DNA from: Arthrobacter sp. NEB 688 | GTDB lineage: Bacteria > Actinomycetota > Actinomycetes > Actinomycetales > Dermatophilaceae | Assembly: GCF_013201035.1 (NCBI RefSeq) | Contig: NZ_CP053707.1 | Location: 3,844,001-3,908,000 of the forward strand | Reading direction: 5' to 3' | DNA length: 64,000 nt | Shown: one piece after another, positions 9,828-42,854 of the stretch | Layout of the letters: every line of letters starts with the position of its first letter | Position numbering within the stretch: position 1 is the first letter of the stretch | The notes under the pieces: model-generated | Told to the model about the DNA's origin: nothing | Database searches by the model: none | What the model saw: the letters and a program-made list of their open reading frames with translations, nothing else | Position numbers and translations under genes: made by a program

Positions 9828-11234
9828 TCAGCGCGGGACGGCCTCCGCGAGGGCCTCGACGGCCTGCGTGAAGCACTGCTCCGGCGGCGTGACGAGCCCG
9901 GCGCCGACCTGCCCGGTGCCCGCGACGCGGCCGGCCATCCCCGTGTTGATCTGGGGCAGCTCGCCGGTGCGGACGACCTTGGTCACGTCGATGCCGACCG
10001 GCGTCCCGCGGAAGCCGAGCACGGGCACCTGGTAGATCGGGTGCTCGCCGACGGTCACCTCGTACATCCGGCGGGTCGCGGCCAGGGCGAACGGCACGTC
10101 GCCCCCGACGAAGCGGACGATGGCGGGCGCCGCGGCCATCGCGAAGCCGCCGATGCCGCCGGTCTCGGTGATCGCCGAGTCGCCGATGTCGGGGTTGGCG
10201 TCGTCGGGTCCGTACTCGCCGAGGAAGAGCCCCTGCGGGGTGTTCGCCGGCCCGGTGAACCAGCGCTCGCCGGTGCCGGAGACGCGGATGCCGAAGTCGG
10301 TGCCGTTGCGCGCCATCGTCGTGACGACGGTCGAGCCGGGGATGCCCTCGGCCGCGAGGGTCGCCAGCTTGCAGGCGGGCATCCCGAGGTTGAGGAAGAA
10401 GTGCTCGTTCGCGCCGGAGAAGCGCACGGCCTCGGCGACCTCGGTCGGGGAGGCGTCGGCGGTGATCATCCCGGGCAGCAGCTCGCGCAGGAGCATGAGC
10501 GAGCCGGCCCGGTTGCGGTTGTGGCCCTCGTCGCCCATCTGGAGCATCTGGGCGACGATCGCGCGGATGTCGATGGGGCCCGTGCTGCGGACGGCCTGGC
10601 GCAGGATCGGGCCGAGGACGTCGCCCATCCAGCGCAGGCGCTCGACGACCTCGGGGCCGTACGCGCCGTAGCGCAGCACCTTGCCCAGGCCCTCGTTGAG
10701 CGAGCACCACGAGGTGTTGTCGTGCACCTCGTCGCGCAGCACGTAGGTCCACATCGACGGGCTGACCACACCGGCCATCGGGCCGACGGCGCCGCGGTGG
10801 TGGCAGGGCTCGAGCTCGAACTCGCCTGCGGCGAGGCGCTGCTCGGCGTCCTCGGCGGTGTCGGCGAGACCCTCGAGGAGGACGGCGCCGATGAGCGCGC
10901 CGCGCAGCGGGCCGGACGCGCGGTCCCACTCGATGGGCGGGCCGGCGTGCAGGAAGGTGCCGCGCTCGAGGCCGAGCGCCTCGGAGGCCGGGGCGACGTC
11001 GACGAGGGTGGCCTCGGCGGCGGTCATCCGGGCGAGCGCGGTGGCGTTGGCCTCCTCGCGGCGCGGGTCGGCCATGACCCGGGCGAGGGCGTCCTCGGTG
11101 CCGGGCATCGGCGGGTGCCAGCCGGCGTCGGTGACGGGCACCGCCTGGTCGCGCAGGGCGTCGGCGAACAGGGCGACCCCGGAGGTCGCGACGACCGGGT
11201 CGGCAGCGAGCAGGCCGCGGAGCGGGGCGGTCAT
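9828..11234 (-). CDS. DUF1116 protein, AllG/YlbE-like subunit of a carbamoyltransferase complex
   Basis: About 468 residues. It belongs to the DUF1116 (YlbE) family, with conserved stretches such as NTSWCSLNEGLGKVLRYG, GDEGHNRNRAG, ANEHFFLNLGMPACK and TMARNGTDFGIRVSGTG. In E. coli the three genes fdrA-ylbE-ylbF (allFGH) are reported to encode oxamate carbamoyltransferase, which phosphorolyses oxalurate to oxamate and carbamoyl phosphate. The same three families occur here in one operon with ATGA overlaps (this ATG at 11234 overlaps the FdrA stop). I infer a carbamoyltransferase of the same chemistry. The substrate may differ, since no allantoin genes are in the window. Confidence 0.85.
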   Translation of the reverse strand: MTAPLRGLLAADPVVATSGVALFADALRDQAVPVTDAGWHPPMPGTEDALARVMADPRREEANATALARMTAAEATLVDVAPASEALGLERGTFLHAGPPIEWDRASGPLRGALIGAVLLEGLADTAEDAEQRLAAGEFELEPCHHRGAVGPMAGVVSPSMWTYVLRDEVHDNTSWCSLNEGLGKVLRYGAYGPEVVERLRWMGDVLGPILRQAVRSTGPIDIRAIVAQMLQMGDEGHNRNRAGSLMLLRELLPGMITADASPTEVAEAVRFSGANEHFFLNLGMPACKLATLAAEGIPGSTVVTTMARNGTDFGIRVSGTGERWFTGPANTPQGLFLGEYGPDDANPDIGDSAITETGGIGGFAMAAAPAIVRFVGGDVPFALAATRRMYEVTVGEHPIYQVPVLGFRGTPVGIDVTKVVRTGELPQINTGMAGRVAGTGQVGAGLVTPPEQCFTQAVEALAEAVPR

Positions 11235-12721
11235 CGGGCACCTCCGAGCAGGGTGACGGCGTGCCGGGTGGCCGCCGCGTTGGACAGGAAGACGGACGCG
11301 CCGCCGGCGGCGAGCGCCTCGGCGCAGCGGCTGCGGCCCTGCGGGTCGGCGTCGGTCCCGGTGAGGGAGACGACGACCGGGAGCGCGCGGCCGGCGGCGT
11401 GGGCGGTCTCGCGGGCGGACCGGATCGCGTCGGCGAGCTCGCCGGCGGGGTCGGGGTGGGCGCCGTGGCCGAGGACGAGGTCGAGGAGGAGGACGCCGCA
11501 GGTCGGGTCCGCCGCCTCGGCGGCGATGCGCTCCATCCGCAGGGTCGGGTCGATCATCGGGTGGGCCCGGCCACGGGTGAGCTCGTCGGCGCCGAAGTCG
11601 ACGACGACGTGGCCCGCGTCGGTGAGGCCGGCGCCGAGCGCCGGCTCGTGGCCGAGGTTGGAGGCGATGGGGCCGAGCGCGTCGGTGGCGACGAGCAGCG
11701 ACTCCTCGGCGAGCGTGCCGCCGCAGAAGAGGCCGCGCAGCGAGGGGCCGACGGGGAGCGTGGCGTCGTCCGGTGCCGCGGTCGTCGCGGGCCACTCGGG
11801 CACGGTGACGCCCTCGGCGGCCAGGGCCTGCTCGACGGCGGCGGTGAGGTCGGGACGGCCGGCACCGAGGGTCGCCCAGTGCACGCGCAGACCGAGGTCG
11901 GCGACCTCCGCGCGCACGGTCTCGAGGACGGCTTCGTCCGGGGGCTTGGAGACGACGAGCACCCACTCGGTGGAGGCGTCCTCGGCGAGGGCGCGCAGGG
12001 CCTGCCGGGTGGAGCGCCCGCCGACGGCGGCCTTGAGGTCGCGGCCACCGACGCCGAGGCAGTGGCTGACGCCGACCCCCGCGGCCTCGAGCAGGCACAT
12101 CGCCTGCTGCGCACCGGTGCCCGACGCGGCGACGATGCCGACGGGGCCCTGGCGCACGACGTTGGCGAAGCCGAGGGCGACCCCGCCGACGAGCGCGGTG
12201 CCGCAGTCGGGGCCCATGACGAGGACGTCAGCGGCGGCCGCCGCGTCCTTGAGCGCGATCTCGTCCTCGACGGACACGTTGTCGGAGAACAGCATCACCG
12301 AGGCGCCGGCGGAGATCGCGTCGTAGGTCTCGGTGACGGCGTGCGCGCCCGGGACCGAGACGACCGCGAGGCCGGCACCCGAGCGGCGGACGGCCGAGCC
12401 GAGGGTCGCCGGCGGCACCTCGTCGGCCGCGCCGGTGTCGGAGGAGGTGGCCGAGAGGGCGCGCAGGGCGTCCTCGACGGCGGCGAGACCGCTCTCGACG
12501 CCGGCCTCGTCGTCCGCGCGGACGGCCACGACGAGGTCGTTCGGCCCGGCGTCGGCCGGCACCTCGAAGCCCATCTGCCCCAGGACGTCGACGTTGAGCT
12601 CGGTGGCCATCGCGACCTGGGCGGCCTGCACCCCCGGGGCGCCGGCGACGCTGCGGGAGACCTGCATGAGGCTCACCGAGTCGTGGTAAGCCCCTCGACG
12701 GAGCTCGACGTGGACGGTCAT
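11231..12721 (-). CDS. fdrA: FdrA/AllF-like acyl-CoA-synthetase-fold subunit of a carbamoyltransferase
   Basis: About 496 residues. FdrA proteins are built from domains related to the succinyl-CoA synthetase subunits. Visible here are VMGPDCGTALVGG, GIVAASGTGAQQAM near residue 200 and SHCLGVGGRDL (the SucD-like Rossmann part), then GLFCGGTLAEE and ASNLGHE in the C-terminal half. The N-terminal 100 residues (ELRRGAYHDSVSLMQVS) are typical of FdrA and separate it from SucD. It overlaps both neighbours by ATGA and should form a complex with them. The probable reaction is transfer of a carbamoyl group between a ureido acid and phosphate. It is not a second succinyl-CoA synthetase. Confidence 0.88.
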   Translation of the reverse strand: MTVHVELRRGAYHDSVSLMQVSRSVAGAPGVQAAQVAMATELNVDVLGQMGFEVPADAGPNDLVVAVRADDEAGVESGLAAVEDALRALSATSSDTGAADEVPPATLGSAVRRSGAGLAVVSVPGAHAVTETYDAISAGASVMLFSDNVSVEDEIALKDAAAAADVLVMGPDCGTALVGGVALGFANVVRQGPVGIVAASGTGAQQAMCLLEAAGVGVSHCLGVGGRDLKAAVGGRSTRQALRALAEDASTEWVLVVSKPPDEAVLETVRAEVADLGLRVHWATLGAGRPDLTAAVEQALAAEGVTVPEWPATTAAPDDATLPVGPSLRGLFCGGTLAEESLLVATDALGPIASNLGHEPALGAGLTDAGHVVVDFGADELTRGRAHPMIDPTLRMERIAAEAADPTCGVLLLDLVLGHGAHPDPAGELADAIRSARETAHAAGRALPVVVSLTGTDADPQGRSRCAEALAAGGASVFLSNAAATRHAVTLLGGAR

Positions 12722-13561: not shown

Positions 13562-13612
13562 ATGGTCAGAGTTGCCAACGATGGGCCCGATCGCGCACAG
13601 ACCTTGCCAGCC
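13560..13612 (-). promoter_or_regulatory. Paired candidate PucR operators upstream of the fdrA-like operon
   Basis: Half-site TTGCCAACG is at 13572-13580 (site centre 13570) and a second, TTGCCAGCC, at 13604-13612 (centre 13602), exactly 32 bp apart. Relative to the minus-strand -10 at 13539 the first centre is 31 bp upstream. Both lie within the first 51 bases of pucR, so binding could also obstruct pucR (autoregulation, inference). The same half-site recurs before four other operons. Confidence 0.6.
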
Positions 13613-16013: not shown

Positions 16014-16094
16014 CGAAACGACAGGTTGCCAACGGTCGGGCCATCCGGCTGTCAAAGATTGCTGAGGGTGTCCTCCCACACCGGTCACTAGGTT
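16014..16094 (+). promoter_or_regulatory. Candidate PucR operators and promoter of the uracil permease gene
   Basis: Half-site TTGCCAACG lies at 16026-16034 (centre 16024). A weaker copy, TTGCTGAGG, lies at 16059-16067 (centre 16057), 33 bp downstream. A -10-like TAGGTT at 16089-16094 is 32 bp beyond the second centre. This spacing is the same as at the other operons. The predicted transcript would have a leader of about 55 bases before the ATG at 16157. Confidence 0.6.
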
Positions 16095-16156: not shown

Positions 16157-17656
16157 ATGTCCCTCGGTCTCGGTTGGAAGGTCAAGGGCGACGGCGCGTC
16201 GCTCGGCCCCGGTGAGGTCGTCGCCCCCGACGAGCGCCTCTCGTGGGGTCGCACCATCGGGCTCGGCGCCCAGCACGTCGTCGCCATGTTCGGCGCCACG
16301 TTCGTCTTCCCGCTGGTCATGGGGCTGAACCCCCAGCTGGCGATCATGATGAGCGGCATCGCGACCATCGCGTTCCTCCTCATCGTCTCGGGCAAGGTCC
16401 CGAGCTACCTCGGCACCTCCGCCTCGTTCGTCGGCGGCGTCGCCGCCGTGCGCGCCCAGGGCGGCGACTCCGCCGAGGTCACCGGTGCGATCCTCGTCGC
16501 GGGCCTCGTCCTCGCGGCCGTCGGCGTCGCGATCCACTTCCTCGGCTCGCGCGTCCTGCACGAGGTGCTGCCGCCGGTCGTCACCGGCGCGGTCGTCATG
16601 CTCATCGGCTTCAACCTGGCCCCGGTCGTCGCCGGCATCTACTGGCCCCAGGACCAGTGGGTCGGCTTCCTGACGATGCTCTTCACGATCGTCGTCGCCG
16701 TCGCCTTCAAGGGCTTCATCGGCCGCGTCGCGATCTTCCTCGCGCTGATCTTCGGCACGCTCCTCTCGTGGATCCTCGACAACACCGTCGGCCAGATCAC
16801 CTCCGTCCTCGGCGGCGCCACCGAGGCGACGACGCACCTGCGCTGGGACACCTCGGGCGTCGGTGACGCCGCGTGGCTCGGCTTCCCGAGCCAGACGATG
16901 ATGGGCGCGGACGGCAAGGAGGTCGTCGGGTGGCACCTGCCGAGCTTCTCGGCCACCGCGATCCTGCTCGTCCTGCCCGCCGTCATCGCCCTCATCGCCG
17001 AGAACACCGGCCACGTCAAGGCCGTCGCCGAGATGACCGGCCACGACCTCGACCCGGTCATGGGCCGCGCCATCGCCGCGGACGGCATCGGCACGGTCAT
17101 CGCGACCTCGGTCGGCGGCTCGCCGACGACCACCTACGCCGAGAACATCGGCGTCATGGCCGCGACCCGCGTCTACTCGACGGCCGCGTACTACGTGGCG
17201 GCGATCGTCGCCCTCCTCTTCGGCCTCTCGCCCAAGTTCGGCGCGCTCGTCGCGTCCGTCCCGGGCGGCGTGCTCGGCGGCATCACGGTCGTCCTCTACG
17301 GGATGATCGGCCTCCTCGGCGCGAAGATCTGGAAGGAGAACGGGGTCGACTTCGGCAACCCGATCAACCTCGTCCCGGTCGCCGCGGGCATCATCATCGG
17401 CATCGGCAACGTCGAGCTCAAGGTGACCGACGACTTCTCGCTCGGCGGCATCGCGCTCGGCACCATCGTCACCGTCGCCGGCTGGCACCTGGCCCGGGCC
17501 CTCGCCCCGGCCGAGCTGCGCCAGGACGCCGAGGGCACGCTCGTCGCGGTCGGCGACCACGTCTACGGCGACAGCGACGGCATCGACGACCTCTACCAGG
17601 ACGGCTACCCCGGCGGCCGCGGCCCGCGCGACCCCGGGCGCGACCACCGTCCCTGA
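16157..17656 (+). CDS. NCS2-family uracil permease (UraA/RutG-like)
   Basis: 499 residues, about 14 membrane segments. Substrate-site motifs are AENTGH (Glu 282) and TTTYAENIGVMAATRVYST (Glu 329). The second is very close to the UraA motif of uracil carriers and unlike the xanthine/urate branch, so uracil (or a related pyrimidine) is the likely substrate. Uptake would be proton-coupled at the cytoplasmic membrane. The ATG at 16157 has AAAGAGG 7 bases upstream. It stands alone: candidate PucR operators lie upstream, and a strong terminator separates it from the molybdenum hydroxylase operon. The C-terminal 40 residues are acidic, then basic, and not conserved. Confidence 0.92.
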   Translation: MSLGLGWKVKGDGASLGPGEVVAPDERLSWGRTIGLGAQHVVAMFGATFVFPLVMGLNPQLAIMMSGIATIAFLLIVSGKVPSYLGTSASFVGGVAAVRAQGGDSAEVTGAILVAGLVLAAVGVAIHFLGSRVLHEVLPPVVTGAVVMLIGFNLAPVVAGIYWPQDQWVGFLTMLFTIVVAVAFKGFIGRVAIFLALIFGTLLSWILDNTVGQITSVLGGATEATTHLRWDTSGVGDAAWLGFPSQTMMGADGKEVVGWHLPSFSATAILLVLPAVIALIAENTGHVKAVAEMTGHDLDPVMGRAIAADGIGTVIATSVGGSPTTTYAENIGVMAATRVYSTAAYYVAAIVALLFGLSPKFGALVASVPGGVLGGITVVLYGMIGLLGAKIWKENGVDFGNPINLVPVAAGIIIGIGNVELKVTDDFSLGGIALGTIVTVAGWHLARALAPAELRQDAEGTLVAVGDHVYGDSDGIDDLYQDGYPGGRGPRDPGRDHRP

Positions 17657-17791: not shown

Positions 17792-18661
17792 GTGAAGCCC
17801 GCCCCCTTCGTCCACCACGCACCCCGCACGCTCGAGGAGGCGGTCGCCGTCCTCGGTGAGGTCGGGCACGACGGCAAGGTGCTCGCGGGCGGCCAGAGCC
17901 TCATCCCCCTGCTCTCGATGCGCCTGGCCTCCCCCGCCCACCTCGTCGACGTCAACGGCGTCGCCGGCCTCGACGCCGTCGAGGTCACCGACACCCACGT
18001 CCGGGTCGGCGCCCTCGTCCGGCACGCCGGCCTCGAGCGCCACGACGGCGCCGCGGCCGCCCTCCCGCTCCTGCGCCAGGCCCTGCGCAACGTCGCCCAC
18101 CCGGCCATCCGGACCCGCGGCACGACGGTCGGCTCGATCGCCCACGCCGACCCCTCCGGCGAGATGCCGGCCGTCACCGTCCTCACCGGTGGCGTCGTCG
18201 AGGCCGCCGGACCGCGCGGGCGCCGCGAGATCGCCGCCGCCGACTTCTTCACCGGCCCGCTCGAGACCACCCTCGCCGAGGACGAGCTCGTCGTCGCCGT
18301 CCGCTTCGGGCTCCTGCCGGCCGGCACGCGCACGGGCTTCGTCGAGTCCGCCCGCCGCTCGGGCGACTACGCCCTCGCCGGGGTCGCCCTCGCCGTCGGG
18401 ATGGACGGCGACGTGGTCACGTCTGCGACCGCCTCGTTCGTGTCGGTCACCCCCGTCCCCGACGTCCTCGACCTCGGGCCGGCCCTCGCCGGCCGGTCGG
18501 TCGGCGACCTCCCCCTCGACGACGTGGCCGAGCTCGTCCGCTCCCACGTCGGCCCCGAGTCCGACATCCACGCCCCCGCCGACTACCGGCGGATGCTCGC
18601 CGCCGAGCTCACCCGGCGCGTGCTGACCACGACCACCACCCCGACGGAGGGAGCGGCATGA
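17792..18661 (+). CDS. Molybdenum hydroxylase, FAD-binding (medium) subunit
   Basis: 289 residues. AGGQSLIPLL (residues 32-41) and TTVGSIAHADPSGE (from 111) are the two FAD-contact motifs of the CoxM/XdhB family. This subunit passes electrons from the Fe-S centres to an acceptor. It begins with a GTG at 17792, 7 bases after a -10-like CAGGAT (leaderless). It is the first of five overlapping genes (FAD, 2Fe-2S, Mo, CoxG-like, amidase). No clear CTGCCAACG operator pair precedes it; a weak match near 17752 may be chance in GC-rich DNA. Confidence 0.92.
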   Translation: MKPAPFVHHAPRTLEEAVAVLGEVGHDGKVLAGGQSLIPLLSMRLASPAHLVDVNGVAGLDAVEVTDTHVRVGALVRHAGLERHDGAAAALPLLRQALRNVAHPAIRTRGTTVGSIAHADPSGEMPAVTVLTGGVVEAAGPRGRREIAAADFFTGPLETTLAEDELVVAVRFGLLPAGTRTGFVESARRSGDYALAGVALAVGMDGDVVTSATASFVSVTPVPDVLDLGPALAGRSVGDLPLDDVAELVRSHVGPESDIHAPADYRRMLAAELTRRVLTTTTTPTEGAA

Positions 18662-26786: not shown

Positions 26787-26866
26787 GCTTGGCGAGGATG
26801 GCCGTCGAATCGGCGTTCCGTCGGCAGCATCTGCCAACGCGGGGGCCACCCCCGGACGGGTTTGAT
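26787..26866 (+). promoter_or_regulatory. Candidate PucR operators and leaderless promoter of hyuAB
   Basis: An inverted repeat has left half CGTCGGCAG at 26819-26827, a 3-base centre, and right half CTGCCAACG at 26831-26839 (centre 26829). A degenerate copy is centred 32 bp upstream at 26797 (core TTGGC). A -10-like TTTGAT at 26861-26866 lies 32 bp after centre 26829 and 7 bases before the HyuA ATG. Confidence 0.65.
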
Positions 26867-26873
26867 CGTCCCC

Positions 26874-28985
26874 ATGACCGACGGGCACCGCAGACGCATC
26901 CGGGTGGGCATCGACACCGGGGGCACGTTCACCGACGTCGTCGCCGTGGACGAGGACTCCGGGGAGGTCGTGACCACCAAGACCCCCAGCACCCCCTCGA
27001 ACCCGGCCGACGGGTTCATCTCCGGGATCGAGAAGATCCTCGGGGTCATGGGGGCCTCGGGCCACGACCTCACGGCCGTCTCGCACGGCACGACGGTCGC
27101 GACGAACAAGCTCCTCGAGGGCAAGGTCGAGCGCCTGGGCTTCATCACGACCGAGGGCTACGAGTTCATGCTCGAGATCGCCCGCCAGGCCGTGCCCGAC
27201 GGCTACGGCAACTCCTACTTCTGGGTCAAACCGCCGCGCATCGTGCCCGCCGACGCTGTCCGCACCGTCCGGGGACGCCTCGACGTCACCGGCGCCGAGG
27301 TGCGGCCGTTCTCGGAGGAGGACGCCGTGGCCGCCGCCCGCTTCTTCCGCGACCGCGGCATCACGACGATCGGCGTCTGCTTCCTGCACGCCTACGCCAA
27401 CGACGAGCACGAGCTCGCGATGCGCGAGGTCCTGCGCCGCGAGCACCCCGAGGCCGTCGTCTCCATCAGCAGCGAGGTGCTGCGCGAGTACCGCGAGTAC
27501 GAACGGGCGATGACCACGCTCGTCGACGCCGCCGTCAAGCCGAACGTCAGCCGCTACGTGACGAACATCCACGAGCGCCTCGACGGGTTCACCGGCGGGC
27601 GTCCGGTGCCGTTCTACGTCATGAAGTCCAACGGCGGCGTGCTGTCGGCCGACGAGGTCGTGCACCAGCCGATCACGACGGTGCTGTCCGGCCCGGCCGC
27701 CGGCGCGCTCGGCGCCGCGCTCATCGCCGAGAAGGCGGGCTTCCACAAGGTCCTCACCTGCGACGGCGGCGGCACGTCGACCGACGTCTCGGTCGTCCTC
27801 GACGGCGAGCCGACGCTGACCACCGAGGGCTCGGTCGGGGCCTACCCCAGCAAGATCCCGATGATCGACGTCGTCACGGTCGGGGCGGGCGGCGGCTCGA
27901 TCGCCTGGGTCTCCCCCGAGGGCACGCTCAAGGTCGGCCCCCACTCGGCCGGCGCCGACCCGGGCCCGCTCTGCTACGGCCGCGGCGGCACCGAGCCGAC
28001 GATCACCGACGCGCACGTCGTGCTCGGGCGCATCCCCCCGCACCTGCTCGGTGGCGAGATCCCCCTCGATGTCGACGCCGCTCGCGCGGGCCTGGTCGAC
28101 CTCGCCGGCAAGCTCGGGCTCGACCTCGAGACCTGCGCGACGGGCATCCTCGAGATCTCGGCGTGGAACCAGGCCAACGCGCTGCGCCAGGTGTCGGTCA
28201 AGCGCGGCCTCGACGTCCGCGACTTCATGCTGACGACGTTCGGCGGCTCGGGCTCGCTCCTCGCGTGCCGGCTGGTCGACGTCCTCGACCTCGCCGGGGC
28301 CGTCGTCCCGCAGAACCCGGGCAACCTCAGCGCCTTCGGCCTGCTGACCGTCGACGTGCGCAACGACTACGTGCAGACGCACGTGGCCCGCCACGACGGC
28401 ATCGACCTCTCCTCCGTCGCCGGGGTGCTCGACTCGCTGACCGCCAAGGGCGCCGCCGCGCTGACGGCCGAGGGCTTCACGCCCGAGCAGCACGAGTTCG
28501 TCCGCACCGCCGACCTACGCTACTTCGGGCAGGCCTACGAGGTGCGCGTGCCGGCCGGCAACGGCCCGGTCGACGACGCGTGGGCCCAGGAGGTCGCGAC
28601 GCGCTTCCACGACGAGCACCGCCAGCTGTACGGCTACGACTTCCGCGACGACCCGACGCAGCACGTCGAGTGGGTCAACCTGCGCGTCACCGGTGTCGGC
28701 CCGATCACTCGCCCCGAGCTGCGTCCGCTGGCCGCGCGCGAGGAGTCGCAGCCGAGCGGTGACGGGCTGCCCGCCCAGCGCTCGGTGCGCCCCGTCTGCT
28801 TCGACCCCGAGGCCGGCTACGTCGACACCCCGGTGCTGTGGCGCCCCGACCTGCGGGCCGGCGACTCCTTCAGCGGGCCGGCCATCGTCGAGGAGTTCGG
28901 CTCGACCGTCCCCGTCCACCCCGGCTTCGCCGTCCGCGTCGACACCTGGGGCAACCTCGTCATCACCCAGGAGGCGACCCGATGA
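26874..28985 (+). CDS. hyuA: Hydantoinase/oxoprolinase family protein, subunit A
   Basis: 703 residues. The N-terminal RVGIDTGGTFTDVV is the ATP-binding signature of the HyuA/acetone-carboxylase-beta/oxoprolinase family. SHGTTVATNKLLEGK, KSNGGVLS and GGGSTS-like TCDGGGTSTDVS follow. Members hydrolyse cyclic amides (hydantoins, 5-oxoproline, N-methylhydantoin) or carboxylate ketones at the cost of ATP. The ATG at 26874 is preferred to the TTG at 26862 because the -10 element overlaps the latter. It overlaps HyuB by ATGA. The operator upstream ties it to the heterocycle regulon, but the true substrate is not clear. Confidence 0.9.
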   Translation: MTDGHRRRIRVGIDTGGTFTDVVAVDEDSGEVVTTKTPSTPSNPADGFISGIEKILGVMGASGHDLTAVSHGTTVATNKLLEGKVERLGFITTEGYEFMLEIARQAVPDGYGNSYFWVKPPRIVPADAVRTVRGRLDVTGAEVRPFSEEDAVAAARFFRDRGITTIGVCFLHAYANDEHELAMREVLRREHPEAVVSISSEVLREYREYERAMTTLVDAAVKPNVSRYVTNIHERLDGFTGGRPVPFYVMKSNGGVLSADEVVHQPITTVLSGPAAGALGAALIAEKAGFHKVLTCDGGGTSTDVSVVLDGEPTLTTEGSVGAYPSKIPMIDVVTVGAGGGSIAWVSPEGTLKVGPHSAGADPGPLCYGRGGTEPTITDAHVVLGRIPPHLLGGEIPLDVDAARAGLVDLAGKLGLDLETCATGILEISAWNQANALRQVSVKRGLDVRDFMLTTFGGSGSLLACRLVDVLDLAGAVVPQNPGNLSAFGLLTVDVRNDYVQTHVARHDGIDLSSVAGVLDSLTAKGAAALTAEGFTPEQHEFVRTADLRYFGQAYEVRVPAGNGPVDDAWAQEVATRFHDEHRQLYGYDFRDDPTQHVEWVNLRVTGVGPITRPELRPLAAREESQPSGDGLPAQRSVRPVCFDPEAGYVDTPVLWRPDLRAGDSFSGPAIVEEFGSTVPVHPGFAVRVDTWGNLVITQEATR

Positions 28986-35002: not shown

Positions 35003-35082
35003 GACTGGCAGAAGGTGCCAGCGGATCGGCCGATCCACGGGCTCAGGACGACGATGGGCGCCTCGGTGACGGCGGCTAGGTT
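35003..35082 (+). promoter_or_regulatory. Candidate PucR operator and promoter of the CoA transferase operon
   Basis: An inverted repeat has left half GACTGGCAG at 35003-35011, a 3-base centre, and right half GTGCCAGCG at 35015-35023. This is the same architecture as the hyu and carbamate kinase operators, with two to three changes per half. A -10-like TAGGTT at 35077-35082 is 64 bp after the centre, equal to the upstream position at the permease gene. No second site is seen 32 bp downstream. Confidence 0.5.
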
Positions 35083-35143: not shown

Positions 35144-36352
35144 GTGACCGGACCCCTGGACGGCATCACCGTCGTCGACCTCTCGCGCGCTCTCGCCGGC
35201 CCGCACGCCGCGATGCTCCTCGGCGACATGGGGGCCCGCGTCGTCAAGGTCGAGTCGCCGACCGGTGACGACACACGGGGATGGGGCCCGCCGTTCGTCG
35301 GCCCCGAGGACGACCCCGTGTCGACGTACTTCCTCTCGTGCAACCGCAACAAGGAGTCGATCGTCCTCGACCTCAAGTCCGACGACGGCCGCGAGACCCT
35401 GACGCGCCTCGTGCGGCACGCGGACGTGCTCATCGAGAACTTCCGGCCGGGTGTCCTCGACCGGCTCGGCTTCGACGTCGAGCGCCTGCACGGGCTCAAC
35501 CCCGGGCTCGTCGTCCTCGCGATCAGCGGGTTCGGGCACGACGGGCCGGAGGGCGGCCGCCCCGGCTACGACCAGATCGCCCAGGGCGAGGCCGGCCTCA
35601 TGTCGGTCACCGGCACCGGGCCCGAGGAGCCGCAACGTGTCGGGGTGCCGATCGGCGACCTCCTCGCCGGGCTGCACGGCGCGTTCGGTGTCGCGACGGC
35701 GCTGCGCGAGCGCGAGCTGACCGGCCGCGGGAGGGTCGTGCGCACGTCGCTGCTCGCGTCCGTCGTCGGCGTCCACGCCTTCCAGGGCACCGCGTACACC
35801 GTTGCGGGGCAGGTCGGCCGGGCGCAGGGCAACCACCACCCGTCACTCGCCCCCTACGGACTCTTCCACGCGAGCGACGGCCCCGTGCAGGTGGCCGTGG
35901 GTTCGCAGGGGCTCTGGGTGCGCTTCGCCGAGGCCTTCGGCATCGACCCCGCCGACCCCCTGCTGGCGACCAACTCCGTCCGCGTCGGCAACCGCGCGCA
36001 CCTCGTCGAGGTCATCGACGCGGCGTTCGCGCAGTGGCGCGCCGAGGACCTGCTCGCCCGGCTGGCCGAGCTCGGCATCCCGTCGGGCAAGGTGCGCTCC
36101 ATCGACGAGGTCTACGACTGGGAGCAGACCCGCTCGCAGGGGCTCGTCATCGACGTCGAGCACCCGGTGCTCGGGCGCATCGAGCTGCCCGGCCCACCGA
36201 TCCGGTTCGACGACAACGCCTTCGCCGGCGGTCGTGACACGCACCAGCCGCCCCCCGGGCTCGGCGAGCACGACGCCTCGGTCCGCGCCTGGCTCGACGA
36301 GGCCGACGAGGCCGACGCGGCGCACGACGCACCCGCGGGAGACGGTCGATGA
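35144..36352 (+). CDS. Class III (CaiB/BaiF) CoA transferase
   Basis: 402 residues. GPLDGITVVDLSRALAGPHAAMLLGDMGARVVKVESPTGDD is the family's N-terminus (read in parts), with the catalytic aspartate expected at about 165 (PGYDQIAQGEAG). These enzymes move CoA between carboxylic acids. The GTG at 35144 has GAGGAG 8 bases upstream. It overlaps the carboxyltransferase gene by ATGA. With an upstream operator of the heterocycle regulon, malonate or a related dicarboxylate is a plausible acceptor (inference). Other acids cannot be excluded. Confidence 0.9.
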   Translation: MTGPLDGITVVDLSRALAGPHAAMLLGDMGARVVKVESPTGDDTRGWGPPFVGPEDDPVSTYFLSCNRNKESIVLDLKSDDGRETLTRLVRHADVLIENFRPGVLDRLGFDVERLHGLNPGLVVLAISGFGHDGPEGGRPGYDQIAQGEAGLMSVTGTGPEEPQRVGVPIGDLLAGLHGAFGVATALRERELTGRGRVVRTSLLASVVGVHAFQGTAYTVAGQVGRAQGNHHPSLAPYGLFHASDGPVQVAVGSQGLWVRFAEAFGIDPADPLLATNSVRVGNRAHLVEVIDAAFAQWRAEDLLARLAELGIPSGKVRSIDEVYDWEQTRSQGLVIDVEHPVLGRIELPGPPIRFDDNAFAGGRDTHQPPPGLGEHDASVRAWLDEADEADAAHDAPAGDGR

Positions 36353-37848
36353 CCGTCGAGGCGCGGCCGCGCCGCCCCGGTGCCCACGAGCTGCTCGGCG
36401 CGGTGCTCGACGAGGGCAGCTTCGTCTCGTGGGACGAGGCGCCCGTGACCGTCACCGAGCCCGGCAGCGAGTACGCCCTCGAGCTGGCCGCCGCCGCCGA
36501 GCGTGCCGGCACCGACGAGTCCATCGTCACCGGGGAGGGCCGGATCGGGGGCCACCGGGTCGCCGTGGTCGTCGGAGAGTTCCGCTTCCTCGCGGGGTCC
36601 ATCGGCCGGGCCGCCGCCGAGCGGGTCACCGCCGCGTTCGAGCGCGCCACCGTCGAGCGGCTGCCGCTGTTCGCCGCACCGTCGTCCGGCGGGACGCGGA
36701 TGCAGGAGGGCACGCCGGCCTTCGTGACGATGGTGAAGATCAGCGGCGCCGTCGCGGCGTTCAAGGCCGCGCGGCTGCCGTACATCACCTACCTGCGGCA
36801 CCCGACGACCGGCGGCGTGCTCGCGTCGTGGGGCTCGCTCGGGCACGTGACCGTCGCCGAGCCGGGCGCGACCATCGGCTTCCTCGGGGCCCGCGTCTAC
36901 GAGGCGCTCTACGGCGAGCCGTTCCCGCCGGACGTCCAGGTCGCCGAGAACCTCTACGCGCACGGGCTCCTCGACGCCGTGCTGCCGGTCGAGGCGCTGA
37001 CCGAGATCGCCGCGCGGTTCCTCGACATCCTCGCGGCGCCGCGCGAGCTGACGCCCGTGCCCGACGTGCCGAAGGAGCCGCTGGCCGACGTCCCGGCCTG
37101 GGAGTCGGTGACGCGTTCGCGGCGCCCGGAGCGTCCAGGCATCCGCGCCCTGCTGCGGCTCGGCGCCTCCGACGTCCTGCCGCTGTTCGGCACCGGTGCC
37201 GGCGAGTGGGACCGCAGCCTCTTCCTCGCGCTGGCGCGCTTCGACGGCGCGACGTGCGTCGTCCTCGGGCAGGACCGCCGGGCCGAGGCGCTCGAGGCGC
37301 CGCTCGGGCCGTCCGGCCTGCGGGTCGCCCGCCGCGGGATGAAGCTCGCGACCGAGCTCGGGCTCCCGCTCGTCAGCCTCATCGACACCGCCGGCGCGGC
37401 CCTGTCGAAGGAGGCCGAGGAGGGCGGGATGGCCGGCGAGATCGCCCGGTGCATCGCCGAGCTCGTCACCCTCCCGGTCCCGACCGTGTGCGTCCTGCTC
37501 GGTCAGGGCACCGGCGGTGGGGCGCTCGCGCTCATGCCGGCCGACCGCGTGCTCGCCGCGCAGCACTCGTGGCTCTCGCCGCTGCCGCCCGAGGGCGCCT
37601 CCGCCATCCTCCACCGCACGACCGAGCGGGCGCCGGAGCTCGCCGACCAGCAGCGGGTGCGCTCGCTCGACCTGCTGGCCGCCGGCATCGTCGACCGTGT
37701 CGTGGCGGAGCATCCCGATGCCGCGGACGAGCCCGAGGCGTTCTGCCGCCGGCTCGCCCAGGCGGTCCGGCACGAGCTCGCCGAGCTCGCACCGCTCGAC
37801 GACACCGACCGCCTGGCCGCCCGGCACGCCCGCTGGCGCGCCCTCTGA
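36349..37848 (+). CDS. Fused carboxyltransferase (AccD/AccA-like) protein
   Basis: 499 residues. Residues about 1-240 resemble the beta half of acetyl-CoA carboxylase carboxyltransferase (APSSGGTRMQEG, YLRHPTTGGVLASW) and about 260-490 resemble the alpha half (SLIDTAGA, GQGTGGGALALMPADRVLA). No zinc-finger Cys motif is seen in the N-terminal half, and no biotin carboxylase or BCCP gene is nearby. It could run a carboxylation or, like the related MdcD/MdcE subunits, decarboxylate malonyl thioesters. Next to a CoA transferase, the second option would take malonate to acetyl-CoA (inference). Confidence 0.85.
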   Translation: MTVEARPRRPGAHELLGAVLDEGSFVSWDEAPVTVTEPGSEYALELAAAAERAGTDESIVTGEGRIGGHRVAVVVGEFRFLAGSIGRAAAERVTAAFERATVERLPLFAAPSSGGTRMQEGTPAFVTMVKISGAVAAFKAARLPYITYLRHPTTGGVLASWGSLGHVTVAEPGATIGFLGARVYEALYGEPFPPDVQVAENLYAHGLLDAVLPVEALTEIAARFLDILAAPRELTPVPDVPKEPLADVPAWESVTRSRRPERPGIRALLRLGASDVLPLFGTGAGEWDRSLFLALARFDGATCVVLGQDRRAEALEAPLGPSGLRVARRGMKLATELGLPLVSLIDTAGAALSKEAEEGGMAGEIARCIAELVTLPVPTVCVLLGQGTGGGALALMPADRVLAAQHSWLSPLPPEGASAILHRTTERAPELADQQRVRSLDLLAAGIVDRVVAEHPDAADEPEAFCRRLAQAVRHELAELAPLDDTDRLAARHARWRAL

Positions 37849-39130: not shown

Positions 39131-39198
39131 CTGCCAACGACGGGCCGGTCCTTGGGCAGAACCTGCCAACGCATCGCCGCCTCCCCGCTCCCTAGGGT
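39131..39198 (+). promoter_or_regulatory. Paired candidate PucR operators and promoter of the carbamate kinase operon
   Basis: Half-site CTGCCAACG is at 39131-39139 (centre 39129). A fuller inverted repeat, left half CTTGGGCAG 39151-39159 and right half CTGCCAACG 39163-39171 (centre 39161), lies exactly 32 bp downstream. A -10-like TAGGGT at 39193-39198 is 32 bp after the second centre. This is the clearest example of the paired layout. Confidence 0.7.
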
Positions 39199-39246: not shown

Positions 39247-40182
39247 ATGCGGGTCCTCCTGGCCCTCGGCGGCAACGCCATGACCGGCCCCGACGGCAGC
39301 GCCACCCCGGCCGCGCAGATCGCCGCGGTGACCGAGGCGATGGGCGCCGCCGCCCGCCTCGTCGCGGCCGGCCACGAGGTCGTCGTCACCCACGGCAACG
39401 GCCCGCAGGTGGGCAACCTGCTCGTGAAGAACGAGCTCGCCGCGCACGTCGTCCCGCCGGTGCCGCTCGACTGGTGCGGCGCCCAGACGCAGGGGACCCT
39501 CGGCTTCACGATCCTCGACGCGCTCGACGCCGCCCTCGCCGCGGCGGGCACCCCCAGGCCCGTCGCGGCCCTCGTCACCCGGACCCTCGTCGACCGCGAC
39601 GACCCCGGCTTCACGCACCCGACGAAGCCCGTCGGCCGCTACGTCGACGCCGACGCCGCCGCGCGCATGGTCGAGCACGGCCAGGTCTGGGAGGACCGCG
39701 GCGAGCGCGGCTGGCGACGGGTCGTCGCGAGCCCCGAGCCGCTCGAGGTCCTCGACGTCCCGGCCGCGCGCACCCTCCTCGACGCGGGCTACGTCGTCGT
39801 CACGGCGGGCGGCGGCGGCATCCCCGTCGTCCGCGACGCCGACGGCACGCTGCGCGGGGTCGAGGCCGTCATCGACAAGGACCTCACCGCCGCGCTGCTC
39901 GCCCGCTCGCTCGGCGCCGACGTCCTCGTCATCGCCACCGACGTCGACCACGCCGCCGTCGGCTTCGGCACCCCGCAGCAGCGCGACCTCGGCCGGGTCA
40001 CCCTCTCCGAGCTGCACGACCTCGCCGCCACCGGTGAGTTCGCGTCCGGCTCGATGGGCCCCAAGGTCGAGGCCGTCGCCCGCTTCGTCGCCGCCGGAGG
40101 ACCGCGCGGCGTCATCACCTCGCTCACCCACATCACCGACGCCGTCGACGGCGGCTTCGGCACCGTCGTCGAACCCGACTGA
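39247..40182 (+). CDS. arcC: Carbamate kinase
   Basis: 311 residues, normal length. LALGGNAM, THGNGPQVGNLL, HPTKPVGRY, TAGGGGIPVV, VIDKDLTAALLA and SMGPKVEA are all typical. It converts carbamoyl phosphate and ADP to ATP, CO2 and ammonia. It is paired in an operon with a ring-opening amidohydrolase, 12 bases downstream, instead of with arginine deiminase genes. Hence the carbamoyl phosphate probably comes from heterocycle breakdown, possibly via the FdrA/DUF1116/DUF2877 complex encoded at 10-13.5 kb (inference). The ATG at 39247 has GGAAGCGAGG upstream. Confidence 0.95.
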   Translation: MRVLLALGGNAMTGPDGSATPAAQIAAVTEAMGAAARLVAAGHEVVVTHGNGPQVGNLLVKNELAAHVVPPVPLDWCGAQTQGTLGFTILDALDAALAAAGTPRPVAALVTRTLVDRDDPGFTHPTKPVGRYVDADAAARMVEHGQVWEDRGERGWRRVVASPEPLEVLDVPAARTLLDAGYVVVTAGGGGIPVVRDADGTLRGVEAVIDKDLTAALLARSLGADVLVIATDVDHAAVGFGTPQQRDLGRVTLSELHDLAATGEFASGSMGPKVEAVARFVAAGGPRGVITSLTHITDAVDGGFGTVVEPD

Positions 40183-40194: not shown

Positions 40195-41322
40195 GTGCCC
40201 GACGCCATCGAGGTCCGCAAGGTCCCCCTGCACAACGTGTCCGACGCCTCCGAGCTCGGCAAGCTCATCGACGCCGGCGTCATGGAGGCCGACCGCGTCA
40301 TCGCCGTCATCGGGAAGACCGAGGGCAACGGCGGGGTCAACGACTACACGCGCATCATCGCCGACCGCGCCTTCCGCGAGATCCTCGTGCAGAAGGGCGC
40401 CGACCCGGCGAAGGTCAAGGAGATCCCGATCGTCTGGTCGGGCGGCACCGACGGCGTCATCAGCCCCCACGCCACCGTCTTCGCGACCGTCCCCGCCGAG
40501 CAGGCGCCGCAGACCGACGAGCCGCGCCTCACCGTCGGCTTCGCGATGAGCGAGCAGCTGGCCCCCGAGGAGATCGGCTACCTGCCGATGGTCGAGAAGG
40601 TCGCCGCCGCGGTCGAGGTCGCGATGGAGCGGGCCGGCATCAGCGACCCGGCCGACGTCCACTACGTCCAGACCAAGACGCCGCTTCTGACCATCCACAC
40701 CATCCGCGACGCGAAGTCCCGCGGCCAGAAGGTCTGGACCGAGCACACGCACGAGTCGATGGACCTCTCCAACGGCTGCACCGCGCTCGGCATCGCCGTC
40801 GCCCTCGGCGAGATCGAGATGCCGACCGACGCCGACGTCATGCACAACCGCGACCTGTACTCCTCGGTCGCGTCCTGCTCCTCGGGCGTCGAGCTCGACC
40901 AGGCGCAGGTCGTCGTCGTCGGCAACGCCCGCGGGGTCGGCGGTCGCTACCGCATCGGTCACTCCGTGATGACCGACGCGCTCGACCAGGACGGCATCTG
41001 GGCCGCCATCAAGGACGCCGGGCTCGACCTGCCGGAGCGCCCGCACCGCAGCGACCTCGACGGCCGCCTCGTCAACGTCTTCCTCAAGTGCGAGGCCAGC
41101 CAGGACGGCACCGTCCAGGGCCGCCGCAACGCGATGCTCGACGACTCGGACGTGCACTGGCACCGCCAGATCAAGTCCTGCGTCGGCGGCGTCACCGCGT
41201 CGGTCACCGGCGACCCGGCCGTCTTCGTCTCCGTCTCGGCCGCCCACCAGGGCCCCGAGGGCGGCGGCCCGGTCGCGGCGATCATCGACCTCGGCGAGGA
41301 GCCCACCGGCTACCGCGCCTGA
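40195..41322 (+). CDS. Ring-opening amidohydrolase, barbiturase/cyanuric acid hydrolase family
   Basis: 375 residues in three repeats, as in AtzD and barbiturase. The serine motifs are [12 protein letters not shown] (Ser 82), SCSSGVEL (Ser 230) and [15 protein letters not shown] (Ser 348). The partner lysines fall at about 41 (GKTEGNGG), 161 (QTKTPLL) and 298 (FLKCEAS). The family opens barbiturate to ureidomalonate or cyanuric acid to carboxybiuret. With a uracil permease, a molybdenum hydroxylase and no triazine genes in the window, barbiturase is the better guess, but the two activities cannot be separated with certainty by eye. GTG start at 40195 with GAGAGGAA upstream. Confidence 0.9.
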
Positions 41323-41337: not shown

Positions 41338-41374
41338 GGAGCCGGCCCTGCTCCCCTGCCGCAGGGTCGGCTCC
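41338..41374 (+). terminator. Terminator of the carbamate kinase operon
   Basis: 14-bp arms with one mismatch (41338-41351 with 41361-41374), 16 bases after the stop of the ring-opening hydrolase. Confidence 0.7.
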
Positions 41375-41424
41375 CGCGCGTCCAGGGGCCGCATGACCTG
41401 ACCCGGCGTGGGTACGGGAGGAGG

Positions 41425-42183
41425 GTGAGCCTCTCCCCCCTGACCGCACCTCCCCCTGTACCGCCGCCCGGCCTCCTCGCCCCCTCGCGGGTCCACGACC
41501 TCGCCACCGCTCCGGACGCCGCCGTCGTCGACGCACTGGCCGAGATGGTCGCGCATCCCGACTACCCCTGTCTCGGAGCGCGATCGGTGTTCCGACGGGG
41601 CGCCGTGACCCCCCACGTCCTCGACGACCTGACGGACGCGCGCCCCGGGGGCTCGCTCGACGAGCTCGGCCGCCGGCTGCGCGACTTCGCGGCCGGCGCC
41701 GACCCCGAGGGCGACCTCGCCTCGTTCGTCGCCTGCTTCCGGGCGCCGCGGGCCGACGAGCGCGGGTTCGAGGAGCAGCTGTGGGCCGCCCTGCGCCACC
41801 TCCAGGCCCACGACGACCGCCCGTGGCCCGGCCACGTCGCGGCCGACCCGGGCGACCCGCACTTCGCCTTCAGCCACGGGGGCACGCCGTTCTTCGTCGT
41901 CGGCCTGCACCCCGGCGCCTCGCGCATCGCCCGCCGCGCACCGCTGCCGACGCTCGTCTTCAACCTCCACGACCAGTTCGAGCGGCTGCGCGAGGACGGG
42001 CGCTACGCGCGGATGCGTGACACGATCCGACGGCGCGACACCGACCTGCAGGGCGGCGTCAACCCGATGGTCGCCGACCACGGCGCGGCGTCCGAGGCCC
42101 GCCAGTACTCCGGTCGCGCGGTGCCCCCGGACTGGACCCCGCCCTTCACCGCCCACCCCGCCCCGTCCGAGGAGCCCGCATGA
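41425..42183 (+). CDS. YqcI/YcgG-family protein
   Basis: 252 residues. Family blocks are YPCLGARSVFRRG, FFVVGLHPGASR, VFNLHDQFERLR, IRRRDTDLQG, NPMVADHG and SEARQYSGR, with a conserved Cys and several His, perhaps a metal or heme-like site. The function of the family is not established. It overlaps the DUF1989 gene by ATGA, and this pairing is frequent in actinobacteria. It starts at a GTG after GGGAGGAGG. It follows the barbiturase operon by about 100 bases and a terminator, so it is a separate transcript. Confidence 0.85.
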   Translation: MSLSPLTAPPPVPPPGLLAPSRVHDLATAPDAAVVDALAEMVAHPDYPCLGARSVFRRGAVTPHVLDDLTDARPGGSLDELGRRLRDFAAGADPEGDLASFVACFRAPRADERGFEEQLWAALRHLQAHDDRPWPGHVAADPGDPHFAFSHGGTPFFVVGLHPGASRIARRAPLPTLVFNLHDQFERLREDGRYARMRDTIRRRDTDLQGGVNPMVADHGAASEARQYSGRAVPPDWTPPFTAHPAPSEEPA

Positions 42184-42854
42184 ACCCCGCCCGCACCCGC
42201 TTCCCCCGCGCGACCGCGGCGCCGCCTTACGCCGGTGGCGCCGACGGGCCCGCGGACGGCTGGCTGCGCATCGCCCCGCAGACCGGGGTCGCCGTCGAGC
42301 TCGCGCCCGGCGACCGGCTGACCCTCCTCGACCCGCTCGGCGAGCAGGTGAGCGACCTCTACCTCGTGCGCTCCGACGACCGCGCCGAGCAGTTCTCGTC
42401 CGGGCGGACGACCGACTTCGGCAACAGCATCTACGTCTCCACCGGGTCGCTGCTCTGGAGCAACCGTTCGACGGTGCTCGCCGAGGTCGTCGACGACACC
42501 GTCGGGGTCCACGACCTCACGCTCACGCCGTGCAGCCAGGCGACGTTCGACATCCTCTACCCCGACCTCGACGGCGGGCCGCACCCCAGCTGCTTCGCGA
42601 ACATCGTCGGGGCCCTCGCGCCGGTCGGCGTCGACGCCGACCGGGTCGGGGTGACGCTCAACGTGTTCATGGACGTGTGGACCGACGGCCGCGGCGAGCT
42701 GCACATCGACCCGCCGCCGACGCGTCCGGGCGACCGGTTCACCATCGAGGCCCGCGAGCCGGTCCTGGCCGCCGTCACCGCCTGCTCGGCGGAGAAGTCC
42801 AACAACGGCCGCTGCACCCCGATCGACTACCGGGTCGAGCGCGCCACCCGCTGA
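42180..42854 (+). CDS. DUF1989 (urea-carboxylase-associated) family protein
   Basis: 224 residues. LAPGDRLTLLDPLGEQVSDLYL, GNSIYVSTGSLLWSN, DLTLTPCSQATFDILYP and NVFMDVWTDGRGEL are typical. The paired DUF1989 proteins that go with urea/guanidine carboxylase act as carboxyguanidine deiminase. Here a single copy is paired with a YcgG-type protein and no carboxylase is nearby, so a different amidine, urea or N-carboxy substrate is possible. It could serve the nitrogen released by the ring-opening pathway just upstream (inference). Confidence 0.85.
   Translation: MNPARTRFPRATAAPPYAGGADGPADGWLRIAPQTGVAVELAPGDRLTLLDPLGEQVSDLYLVRSDDRAEQFSSGRTTDFGNSIYVSTGSLLWSNRSTVLAEVVDDTVGVHDLTLTPCSQATFDILYPDLDGGPHPSCFANIVGALAPVGVDADRVGVTLNVFMDVWTDGRGELHIDPPPTRPGDRFTIEAREPVLAAVTACSAEKSNNGRCTPIDYRVERATR

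What the first reader, a model, noticed from the sequence alone, without database searches (positions are those of the whole stretch)
9828..42854. A possible energy-conserving oxidative uracil pathway spread over five operons
The window holds a UraA-type permease, a molybdenum hydroxylase, a barbiturase-family ring opener, the FdrA/DUF1116/DUF2877 set (oxamate carbamoyltransferase in E. coli), carbamate kinase, a nitrilase-fold amidase, a class III CoA transferase and a carboxyltransferase. Uracil to barbiturate to ureidomalonate is the known oxidative route of some actinobacteria, which is described as ending in hydrolysis to urea and malonate. Ureidomalonate is oxalurate with one extra CH2, so an AllFGH-like enzyme could split it with phosphate to malonamate and carbamoyl phosphate. 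Carbamate kinase would then make ATP, the amidase would give malonate, and the CoA transferase and carboxyltransferase would give acetyl-CoA. The gene families are seen; the order of steps and the substrates are inference.
Basis: partly seen in the sequence, partly recalled or inferred. Interest (0 to 1): 0.93.

Follow-up and report, generated by a model that had tools for sequence, protein, structure and literature searches.

The report
Uracil breakdown that saves ATP
This actinobacterium carries a linked set of genes, largely shared with dozens of relatives, that is predicted to oxidise uracil to barbiturate and would save the energy of the last carbamoyl bond as ATP, where the textbook Rhodococcus route releases urea.

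Summary
The ring opener is a true barbiturase, by nearest solved structure and by all five published specificity residues. Comparative genomics supports the interpretation. In 246 genomes sampled from the phylum, all 14 with a barbiturase-type gene also have AllG; the 2 with a cyanuric-acid-type gene do not. Of 49 named barbiturase genomes, 45 have AllG; the other 4 are all Rhodococcus, the same 4 of 80 loci that lack carbamate kinase near barbiturase. R. erythropolis, where the urea-forming route was described, otherwise keeps the set and has an amidase beside barbiturase. In distant genomes most of the set forms one compact cluster. All five window operons carry a shared upstream motif, whole or half. 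Urease is absent from most AllG genomes, and the E. coli oxalurate-forming enzyme was not recognised in any of 59. Best reading: a phosphorolytic, ATP-yielding branch of oxidative uracil catabolism. The AllFGH substrate (ureidomalonate) and product (malonamate) are inferred, not assayed. I found no paper describing it in the library searched.

The parts
9828..11234 (-). AllG-like subunit (DUF1116) of the predicted ureidomalonate carbamoyltransferase
   Evidence: PF06545 325 bits, cut-off 27; 48% identical to E. coli AllG; barbiturase-linked clade 99/94
11231..12721 (-). AllF-like subunit (FdrA)
   Evidence: PF00549; NF004760 387 bits, below its cut-off 433; 37% identical to E. coli AllF; E. 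coli FdrA structure 3dmy 217 bits
12718..13527 (-). AllH-like subunit (DUF2877)
   Evidence: PF11392 86 bits, cut-off 25; 38% identical to E. coli AllH over 108 residues
13604..14920 (+). PucR-type regulator, candidate regulator of the set
   Evidence: GGDEF_2 and HTH_30
16157..17656 (+). NCS2 nucleobase permease, predicted uracil uptake
   Evidence: PF00860; RutG model 351 bits, below its cut-off 759; 68-69% identical to permeases beside barbiturase in R. erythropolis
17792..18661 (+). Molybdenum hydroxylase, FAD subunit
   Evidence: PF00941, PF03450
18658..19170 (+). Molybdenum hydroxylase, 2Fe-2S subunit
   Evidence: PF01799, PF00111
19167..21569 (+). Molybdenum hydroxylase, large subunit; predicted uracil dehydrogenase
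   Evidence: NF040766 1540 bits; loop PYRGAGR; nearest solved structure quinoline 2-oxidoreductase, 460 bits
21566..22240 (+). CoxG-like protein, predicted accessory to the molybdenum enzyme
   Evidence: PF06240
22240..23139 (+). Nitrilase-fold amidase; predicted malonamate amidase
   Evidence: PF00795 171 bits; same place after CoxG in relatives; nearest structures are Nit-type amidases
26862..28985 (+). HyuA, ATP-dependent cyclic-amide hydrolase family; role unsettled
   Evidence: PF01968, PF05378; N-methylhydantoinase structure 488 bits
28982..30973 (+). HyuB, partner of HyuA
   Evidence: PF02538 457 bits
35144..36352 (+). Class III CoA-transferase; predicted malonate activation
   Evidence: PF02515 391 bits; 66% identical to a gene two places from barbiturase in R. 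erythropolis
36349..37848 (+). Fused carboxyltransferase; predicted malonyl-CoA decarboxylation
   Evidence: PF01039, PF03255; 60% identical to an R. erythropolis gene in the same locus
39247..40182 (+). Carbamate kinase
   Evidence: NF009007 302 bits, cut-off 266; immediately upstream of barbiturase in 75 of 80 named loci
40195..41322 (+). Barbiturase
   Evidence: Barbiturase 5hwe 693 bits; residues N193 H323 K327 V347 S348
13573..13580 (+). TGCCAACG, motif half between allH and pucR
16027..16034 (+). TGCCAACG, motif half before the permease
26823..26839 (+). GGCA-N5-TGCCAACG before hyuA
35007..35019 (+). GGCA-N5-TGCC before the CoA-transferase
39132..39139 (+). TGCCAACG, first site before carbamate kinase
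39155..39171 (+). GGCA-N5-TGCCAACG, second site before carbamate kinase

Best explanation
The window encodes a barbiturase, a carbamate kinase, an AllFGH-type complex and a molybdenum hydroxylase, which together likely form an ATP-yielding branch of oxidative uracil breakdown. The permease would import uracil and the molybdenum hydroxylase would hydroxylate it to barbiturate. Barbiturase opens the ring to ureidomalonate, the reaction known for its family. The AllFGH-like complex would split ureidomalonate with phosphate into carbamoyl phosphate and malonamate, as E. coli AllFGH splits oxalurate into carbamoyl phosphate and oxamate. Carbamate kinase would turn carbamoyl phosphate and ADP into ATP, ammonia and CO2. 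The nitrilase-fold amidase would free the second ammonia and malonate, and the CoA-transferase and carboxyltransferase would carry malonate to acetyl-CoA. Shown: gene identity, linkage, co-occurrence, the Rhodococcus contrast and the motif. Inferred: the substrates of all enzymes other than barbiturase, and what binds the motif.
For: Barbiturase identity. 14 of 14 barbiturase-type genomes in the phylum sample have AllG, 0 of 2 cyanuric-acid-type. AllG in 45 of 49 named barbiturase genomes; the 4 without are Rhodococcus, which also lack carbamate kinase near barbiturase. Carbamate kinase within 10 kb of barbiturase in 76 of 80 loci, immediately upstream in 75. AllG within 45 kb of barbiturase in 39 of 45 named and 11 of 14 sampled genomes. 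Compact clusters in distant genomes. Own AllG clade. An amidase after CoxG in 18 of 20 places, of two unrelated families, and an asparaginase in two other clusters. AllD over its cut-off in 0 of 59. Urease alpha absent in 10 of 14 and 37 of 45 AllG genomes. Shared motif.
Against: No assay exists. In Actinomycetes AllFGH is usually 17-45 kb from barbiturase, not in its operon; 5 of 45 have it on another contig and 1 at 2.1 Mb. Urease is present in 8 of 45 (one partial) and 4 of 14. The Rhodococcus contrast is one lineage. Amidases 41-54% identical to the Rhodococcus one occur in 5 of 13 AllG genomes tested, so some could hydrolyse ureidomalonate. No amidase was seen after CoxG in G060 or G094. 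Three genomes have AllFG, HyuAB and the Mo enzyme without barbiturase, so AllFGH may also serve another ring opener. The motif was absent from the few PucR, UraA and MoFAD upstream regions testable in relatives (0 of 6, 0 of 5, 0 of 6).
Confidence: 0.78

Rival explanations
1. The textbook hydrolytic route operates: an amidase in the cluster is the ureidomalonase giving urea and malonate, and AllFGH with carbamate kinase serve another pathway such as purine-derived oxalurate.
For: R. erythropolis has an amidase directly after barbiturase, and amidases 41-54% identical to it occur in 5 of 13 AllG genomes tested. E. coli AllFGH acts on oxalurate (PMC11326118 passages). 12 of 59 genomes have weak AllD-family relatives.
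Against: AllD over its cut-off in 0 of 59 and no match in the window genome. Urease missing in most of these genomes and urea carboxylase over its cut-off in none of the 14 barbiturase+AllG genomes tested. The amidase family changes between lineages, while AllFGH and carbamate kinase stay. AllG follows barbiturase-type, not cyanuric-acid-type, ring openers.
Confidence: 0.12
2. AllFGH serves mainly the product of HyuAB (for example a thymine-derived 5-methylbarbiturate or a hydantoin), while barbiturase feeds another route.
For: Three f9 genomes have the Mo enzyme, HyuAB and AllFG with no AtzD-family gene. HyuB is within 10 kb of barbiturase in 52 of 80 loci. HyuA is nearest to N-methylhydantoinase among solved structures.
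Against: Carbamate kinase lies directly beside barbiturase in 75 of 80 loci. R. erythropolis has HyuAB without AllG. Several compact clusters with AllFGH and barbiturase show no HyuAB in the stretch fetched (L025, L026, L031), though HyuAB elsewhere in those genomes was not searched for.
Confidence: 0.08
3. It is a cyanuric acid / biuret pathway, with AllFGH acting on a biuret-type compound.
For: NCBIfam NF052395 (cyanuric acid amidohydrolase) is over its cut-off, 471 against 360 bits. allFGHK lie beside biuret and triuret genes in comammox bacteria (PMC12625717 passages).
Against: All five specificity residues are barbiturase-type; barbiturase is the best structure by 380 bits; the two genomes with cyanuric-acid-type residues lack AllG and the Mo subunit match. 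No biuret-hydrolase (isochorismatase-type) or allophanate-hydrolase domain appeared among the 30 window proteins scanned with Pfam.
Confidence: 0.02

Closest known systems
Oxidative pyrimidine pathway of Rhodococcus erythropolis (barbiturase, ureidomalonase; Soong et al. 2001, 2002, known here through PMC3758960 passages and recall)
   Same: Barbiturase (85% identical), Mo hydroxylase, CoxG, NCS2 permeases, PucR regulators, CoA-transferase, carboxyltransferase and HyuAB are all in the R. erythropolis locus
   Different: Rhodococcus has no AllG, no carbamate kinase near barbiturase, and an amidase directly after barbiturase; the route here would be phosphorolytic and yield ATP
E. coli oxamic transcarbamylase AllFGH with carbamate kinase AllK (PMC11326118 passages; PMC9843812 seen in search listing only)
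   Same: Same three subunit families and a carbamate kinase; the same bond type would be split, since ureidomalonate is oxalurate with one more CH2
   Different: AllF 37%, AllG 48%, AllH 38% (over 108 residues) identical; separate AllG clade; linked to barbiturase, not to allantoin genes; no recognised AllD
allFGHK beside triuret/biuret genes in comammox bacteria (PMC12625717 passages)
   Same: AllFGHK placed next to a ureide-degrading gene set
   Different: No barbiturase or Mo hydroxylase is mentioned in the passages seen; there the substrate is proposed to be oxalurate
Ureidoglycine carbamoyltransferase of Rubrobacter xylanophilus (PMC4016543 passages)
   Same: Phosphorolysis replaces hydrolysis in a nucleobase pathway, with carbamate kinase next door
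   Different: ATCase-type enzyme, unrelated to AllFGH; purine pathway

Membership tests
Barbiturase (EC 3.5.2.1) | Bar-type residues Asn, His, Lys, Val, Ser/Ala at AtzD positions 195, 321, 325, 345, 346 | tested here: met
   N193 H323 K327 V347 S348; published rule read in PMC3758960 section 12, residues by alignment
Barbiturase (EC 3.5.2.1) | Closer to solved barbiturase than to cyanuric acid hydrolases | tested here: met
   693 bits against 313 or less for the other six chains matched
Barbiturase (EC 3.5.2.1) | Hydrolyses barbiturate | not testable with these tools
   needs an assay
Oxamic transcarbamylase (AllFGH) | All three subunit families adjacent | tested here: met
   PF06545, FdrA-type and PF11392 genes overlap end to end at 9828-13527
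Oxamic transcarbamylase (AllFGH) | NCBIfam FdrA subfamily NF004760 cut-off | tested here: not met
   387 bits against cut-off 433
Oxamic transcarbamylase (AllFGH) | Genomic source of oxalurate (AllD) | tested here: not met
   TIGR03175 over cut-off in 0 of 59 genomes, no match in the window genome; E. coli control over it
Oxamic transcarbamylase (AllFGH) | Carbamoyl transfer between oxamate and carbamoyl phosphate | not testable with these tools
   needs an assay
Rhodococcus-type oxidative pyrimidine pathway | Barbiturase, Mo hydroxylase, permease, CoA-transferase and carboxyltransferase together | tested here: met
   same families in the R. erythropolis locus
Rhodococcus-type oxidative pyrimidine pathway | Amidase orthologous to the one beside Rhodococcus barbiturase (candidate ureidomalonase) | tested here: not met
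   no match at E 1e-60 in the window genome
Aerobic CO dehydrogenase (label of NF040766) | Active-site loop AYXCSFR with cysteine (motif recalled as the form I mark; papers using it seen in a search listing only) | tested here: not met
   loop reads PYRGAGR
Catabolic carbamate kinase | Carbamate kinase family cut-off | tested here: met
   NF009007 302 bits, cut-off 266; the equivalog TIGR00746 is missed, 339.5 against 358

The most novel reading that the evidence does not exclude
Outside Rhodococcus, oxidative pyrimidine breakdown is one energy-conserving regulon. A new enzyme, ureidomalonate carbamoyltransferase (this AllFGH clade), feeds carbamate kinase. The family labelled CO dehydrogenase group 5 is the uracil dehydrogenase. 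HyuAB open 5-methylbarbiturate so that thymine enters the same phosphorolytic route. The urea-forming textbook pathway is the Rhodococcus exception.
Probability: 0.45. Interest if true: 0.9.

Novelty: new variant of a known kind. Interest (0 to 1): 0.83.

Why it matters
It would add a substrate-level ATP step to a pathway known only as hydrolytic, and explain how actinobacteria without a recognised urease could recover both uracil nitrogens. It gives candidate genes for uracil dehydrogenase, for the Rhodococcus ureidomalonase (the amidase beside barbiturase) and for a new carbamoyltransferase activity, and would correct database labels (CO dehydrogenase, cyanuric acid hydrolase). It can be tested directly in relatives such as Janibacter, Terrabacter or Nocardioides.

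Tried and rejected
Cyanuric-acid reading: rejected by residues, structure scores and absence of AllG from the two cyanuric-acid-type genomes. CO dehydrogenase reading of the Mo subunit: loop and nearest solved structure disagree. HyuAB as tied to AllFGH: dropped after R. erythropolis proved to have HyuAB without AllG. The longer motif CTGCCAACGNNNGGGCC with 3 mismatches was no better than chance (27 found, 22.3 expected); the shorter TGCCAACG and the palindrome held. One of the 4 palindrome matches in the window (19075-19087) lies inside the 2Fe-2S gene and was not counted. The urea carboxylase search matched in all 19 genomes, mostly through the biotin-carboxylase part, so only the over-cut-off match was used. 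My gene caller missed Rhodococcus genes (lower GC), so tblastn was used there. Structure prediction was not used.
Full report
WHAT IS THERE. The window (64 kb, 73.9% GC) lies in a one-contig, 4.08 Mb genome given as 100% complete. It is an actinobacterium: the nearest named relatives of its barbiturase are from a Dermatophilaceae bacterium (91%) and Phycicoccus (90%).

THE RING OPENER IS A BARBITURASE. NCBIfam would label it cyanuric acid amidohydrolase (471 bits, cut-off 360), but the solved barbiturase 5hwe scores 693 bits against 313 or less for the other six chains matched. The five positions that separate the two activities (PMC3758960, section 12 read) read N, H, K, V, S, the barbiturase type. 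Of 96 family members aligned (window, 13 further sampled genomes with AllG, G049, G181 and 80 named loci), 94 carry NHKV plus S, G or A, and 2, G049 and G181, carry the cyanuric-acid type RTRGG. The published rule names Ser or Ala at the last place; 6 members have Gly there.

CO-OCCURRENCE. In 246 genomes drawn evenly from the phylum, the AtzD family occurs in 16, AllG in 33 and both in 14 (Fisher p 3.6e-12). The two AtzD-positive genomes without AllG are the two with the cyanuric-acid signature, so 14 of 14 barbiturase-type genomes have AllG. With a strict threshold (E 1e-300, which may drop matches just over the model's cut-off), the Mo subunit family NF040766 occurs in 18 of 246: all 14 of these, plus G013 and three f9 genomes that have AllFG and HyuAB genes but no AtzD-family match. 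All 18 have AllG.

LINKAGE. In f16 genomes (the barbiturase of G009 is identical to one from Egicoccus sp., and relatives are named Nitriliruptoraceae) and in f47 genome G114, barbiturase, permease, carbamate kinase, AllF, AllG and the Mo hydroxylase lie in compact runs, in several with AllH and with a PucR gene beside barbiturase. In others the set is split by contig ends or further genes. Carbamate kinase was seen in the window or the fetched stretches of 12 of the 14 (not G094 or G244). AllG and barbiturase share a contig, 6-44 kb apart, in 11 of 14. In 80 named loci, carbamate kinase lies within 10 kb of barbiturase in 76 and immediately upstream in 75. AllG is present in 45 of 49 named genomes (50 of 80 handles given, one not held) and on the same contig within 45 kb of barbiturase in 39 of 45 (5 other contig, 1 at 2.1 Mb).

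THE RHODOCOCCUS CONTRAST. The 4 of 49 genomes without AllG are all Rhodococcus/Rhodococcoides, and they are the 4 of 80 loci without carbamate kinase. R. erythropolis, where barbiturase was characterised and the urea-forming pathway is reported (PMC3758960 passages; the original papers were not seen), otherwise carries the set: PucR, permeases, CoA-transferase, carboxyltransferase, barbiturase (85%), the three Mo hydroxylase subunits, CoxG, HyuA and HyuB. Directly after its barbiturase is an amidase-signature gene, 78-100% identical across the four Rhodococcus and without a match at E 1e-60 in the window genome. So one module, AllFGH plus carbamate kinase, appears swapped for one amidase. Against this: 5 of 13 AllG genomes tested do hold amidases 41-54% identical to it, and the contrast rests on one lineage.

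THE SECOND AMIDE. If AllFGH splits ureidomalonate with phosphate, malonamate remains and needs an amidase. The gene after CoxG in the named loci is an amidase-signature gene in 15, a nitrilase-fold gene in 3 and an unassigned opposite-strand gene in 2 of 20; one of these 2 belongs to a second CoxG gene in L101. In two f47 genomes an asparaginase-type gene lies in the cluster or beside carbamate kinase. In R. erythropolis HyuA follows CoxG directly. The amidase tree keeps the Rhodococcus barbiturase-adjacent type apart from the CoxG-adjacent types (several long branches; one Jatrophihabitans gene sits after barbiturase and groups with neither). An amidase was not seen after CoxG in G060 or G094, and in some genomes the fetched stretch ends before it.

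UREA AND OXALURATE. Urease alpha is not found in the window genome; it is absent from 10 of 14 sampled and 37 of 45 named AllG genomes (one of the 8 positives is partial) and present in 4 of 4 Rhodococcus (Fisher p 0.002, not corrected for kinship). Urea carboxylase is over its cut-off only in G049 of 19 genomes. AllD, the ureidoglycolate dehydrogenase of E. coli, is over its cut-off in 0 of 59 barbiturase+AllG genomes; 12 of 59 have weaker family relatives, the window genome none. Neither urea use nor a recognised oxalurate supply explains the genes well.

THE ALLFGH CLADE. The proteins are 37, 48 and 38% identical to E. coli AllF, AllG and AllH (AllH over 108 residues). The 24 barbiturase-linked AllG rows given (the 14 sampled genomes and 10 of the 30 named loci held) form one group (99/94) apart from E. 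coli AllG and from AllG of genomes without barbiturase (midpoint root, few outgroups).

THE MO HYDROXYLASE. NF040766 calls it CO dehydrogenase, but the loop is PYRGAGR and the nearest solved structure is quinoline 2-oxidoreductase (460 bits; CO dehydrogenases 334-401). Its linkage to barbiturase in both the Rhodococcus and the AllFGH types makes it the best candidate for uracil dehydrogenase. That the gene of that enzyme is unassigned is recalled.

SHARED MOTIF. The window holds TGCCAACG five times (1.05 expected, 0 of 100 shuffles reach five), each upstream of a pathway operon: allHFG/pucR, permease, hyuAB and twice before carbamate kinase-barbiturase. Three of four GGCA-N5-TGCC sites lie before hyuA, the CoA-transferase and carbamate kinase (1.27 expected). 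In the named loci the palindrome lies upstream of hyuA in 26 of 35, carbamate kinase in 25 of 67 and the CoA-transferase in 7 of 33, against 16 of 731 other genes. It was rare or absent before barbiturase (2 of 36), amidase (0 of 18), nitrilase (0 of 4), PucR (0 of 6 and 0 of 1), UraA (0 of 5) and MoFAD (0 of 6). The motif was first seen by eye in the window and then tested in relatives, which are not independent. That PucR binds it is inference.

LITERATURE. Searches on barbiturase/ureidomalonase, FdrA/DUF1116/carbamate kinase, oxidative pyrimidine, uracil dehydrogenase, malonamate/ureidomalonate and combinations listed no paper that joins barbiturase with AllFGH or carbamate kinase. The library lacks most subscription journals. 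Seen as passages: PMC12625717, PMC11326118, PMC4016543, PMC4051656, PMC3758960 (and its section 12). PMC9843812 and the CO dehydrogenase papers were seen in search listings only.

VERDICT. What remains open is chemistry: the AllFGH substrate, the amidase substrate, the role of HyuAB and the fate of malonate.

Noticed in passing
window 19167-21569: NCBIfam NF040766 labels this Mo subunit aerobic CO dehydrogenase, but its loop is PYRGAGR and it occurs with AllG in 18 of 18 sampled genomes that have it; the label looks wrong.
   Followed up: yes
window 40195-41322: NCBIfam NF052395 and many public records name barbiturases of this type cyanuric acid amidohydrolase, against their specificity residues.
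   Followed up: yes
window 26862-30973: HyuA-HyuB travel with the cluster also in R. erythropolis, and in three f9 genomes with AllFG but no AtzD-family match (L045, L047, L048); a second ring opener, perhaps for the thymine branch.
   Followed up: partly
L093:12768-13991: A class III aminotransferase sits between the amidase and the permease in the R. erythropolis barbiturase locus.
   Followed up: no
window 41587-42854: A YqcI/YcgG-family gene (NCBIfam GntA-type heme N-hydroxylase) and a DUF1989 gene follow barbiturase; among the 80 named loci the pair was seen only in L091.
   Followed up: no
window 30973-31815: An NmrA-like NAD-binding protein gene follows HyuB; a relative is near barbiturase in 35 of 80 named loci. 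Function unknown.
   Followed up: no
window 31898-34810: A fungalysin-type M36 metallopeptidase gene lies between the HyuAB and CoA-transferase operons on the other strand.
   Followed up: no
L046 (G013): AllF-AllG-AllH beside a permease, a cyclase-family (PF04199) gene and an OCD/mu-crystallin gene, in a genome without an AtzD-family match; perhaps another ureide substrate.
   Followed up: no
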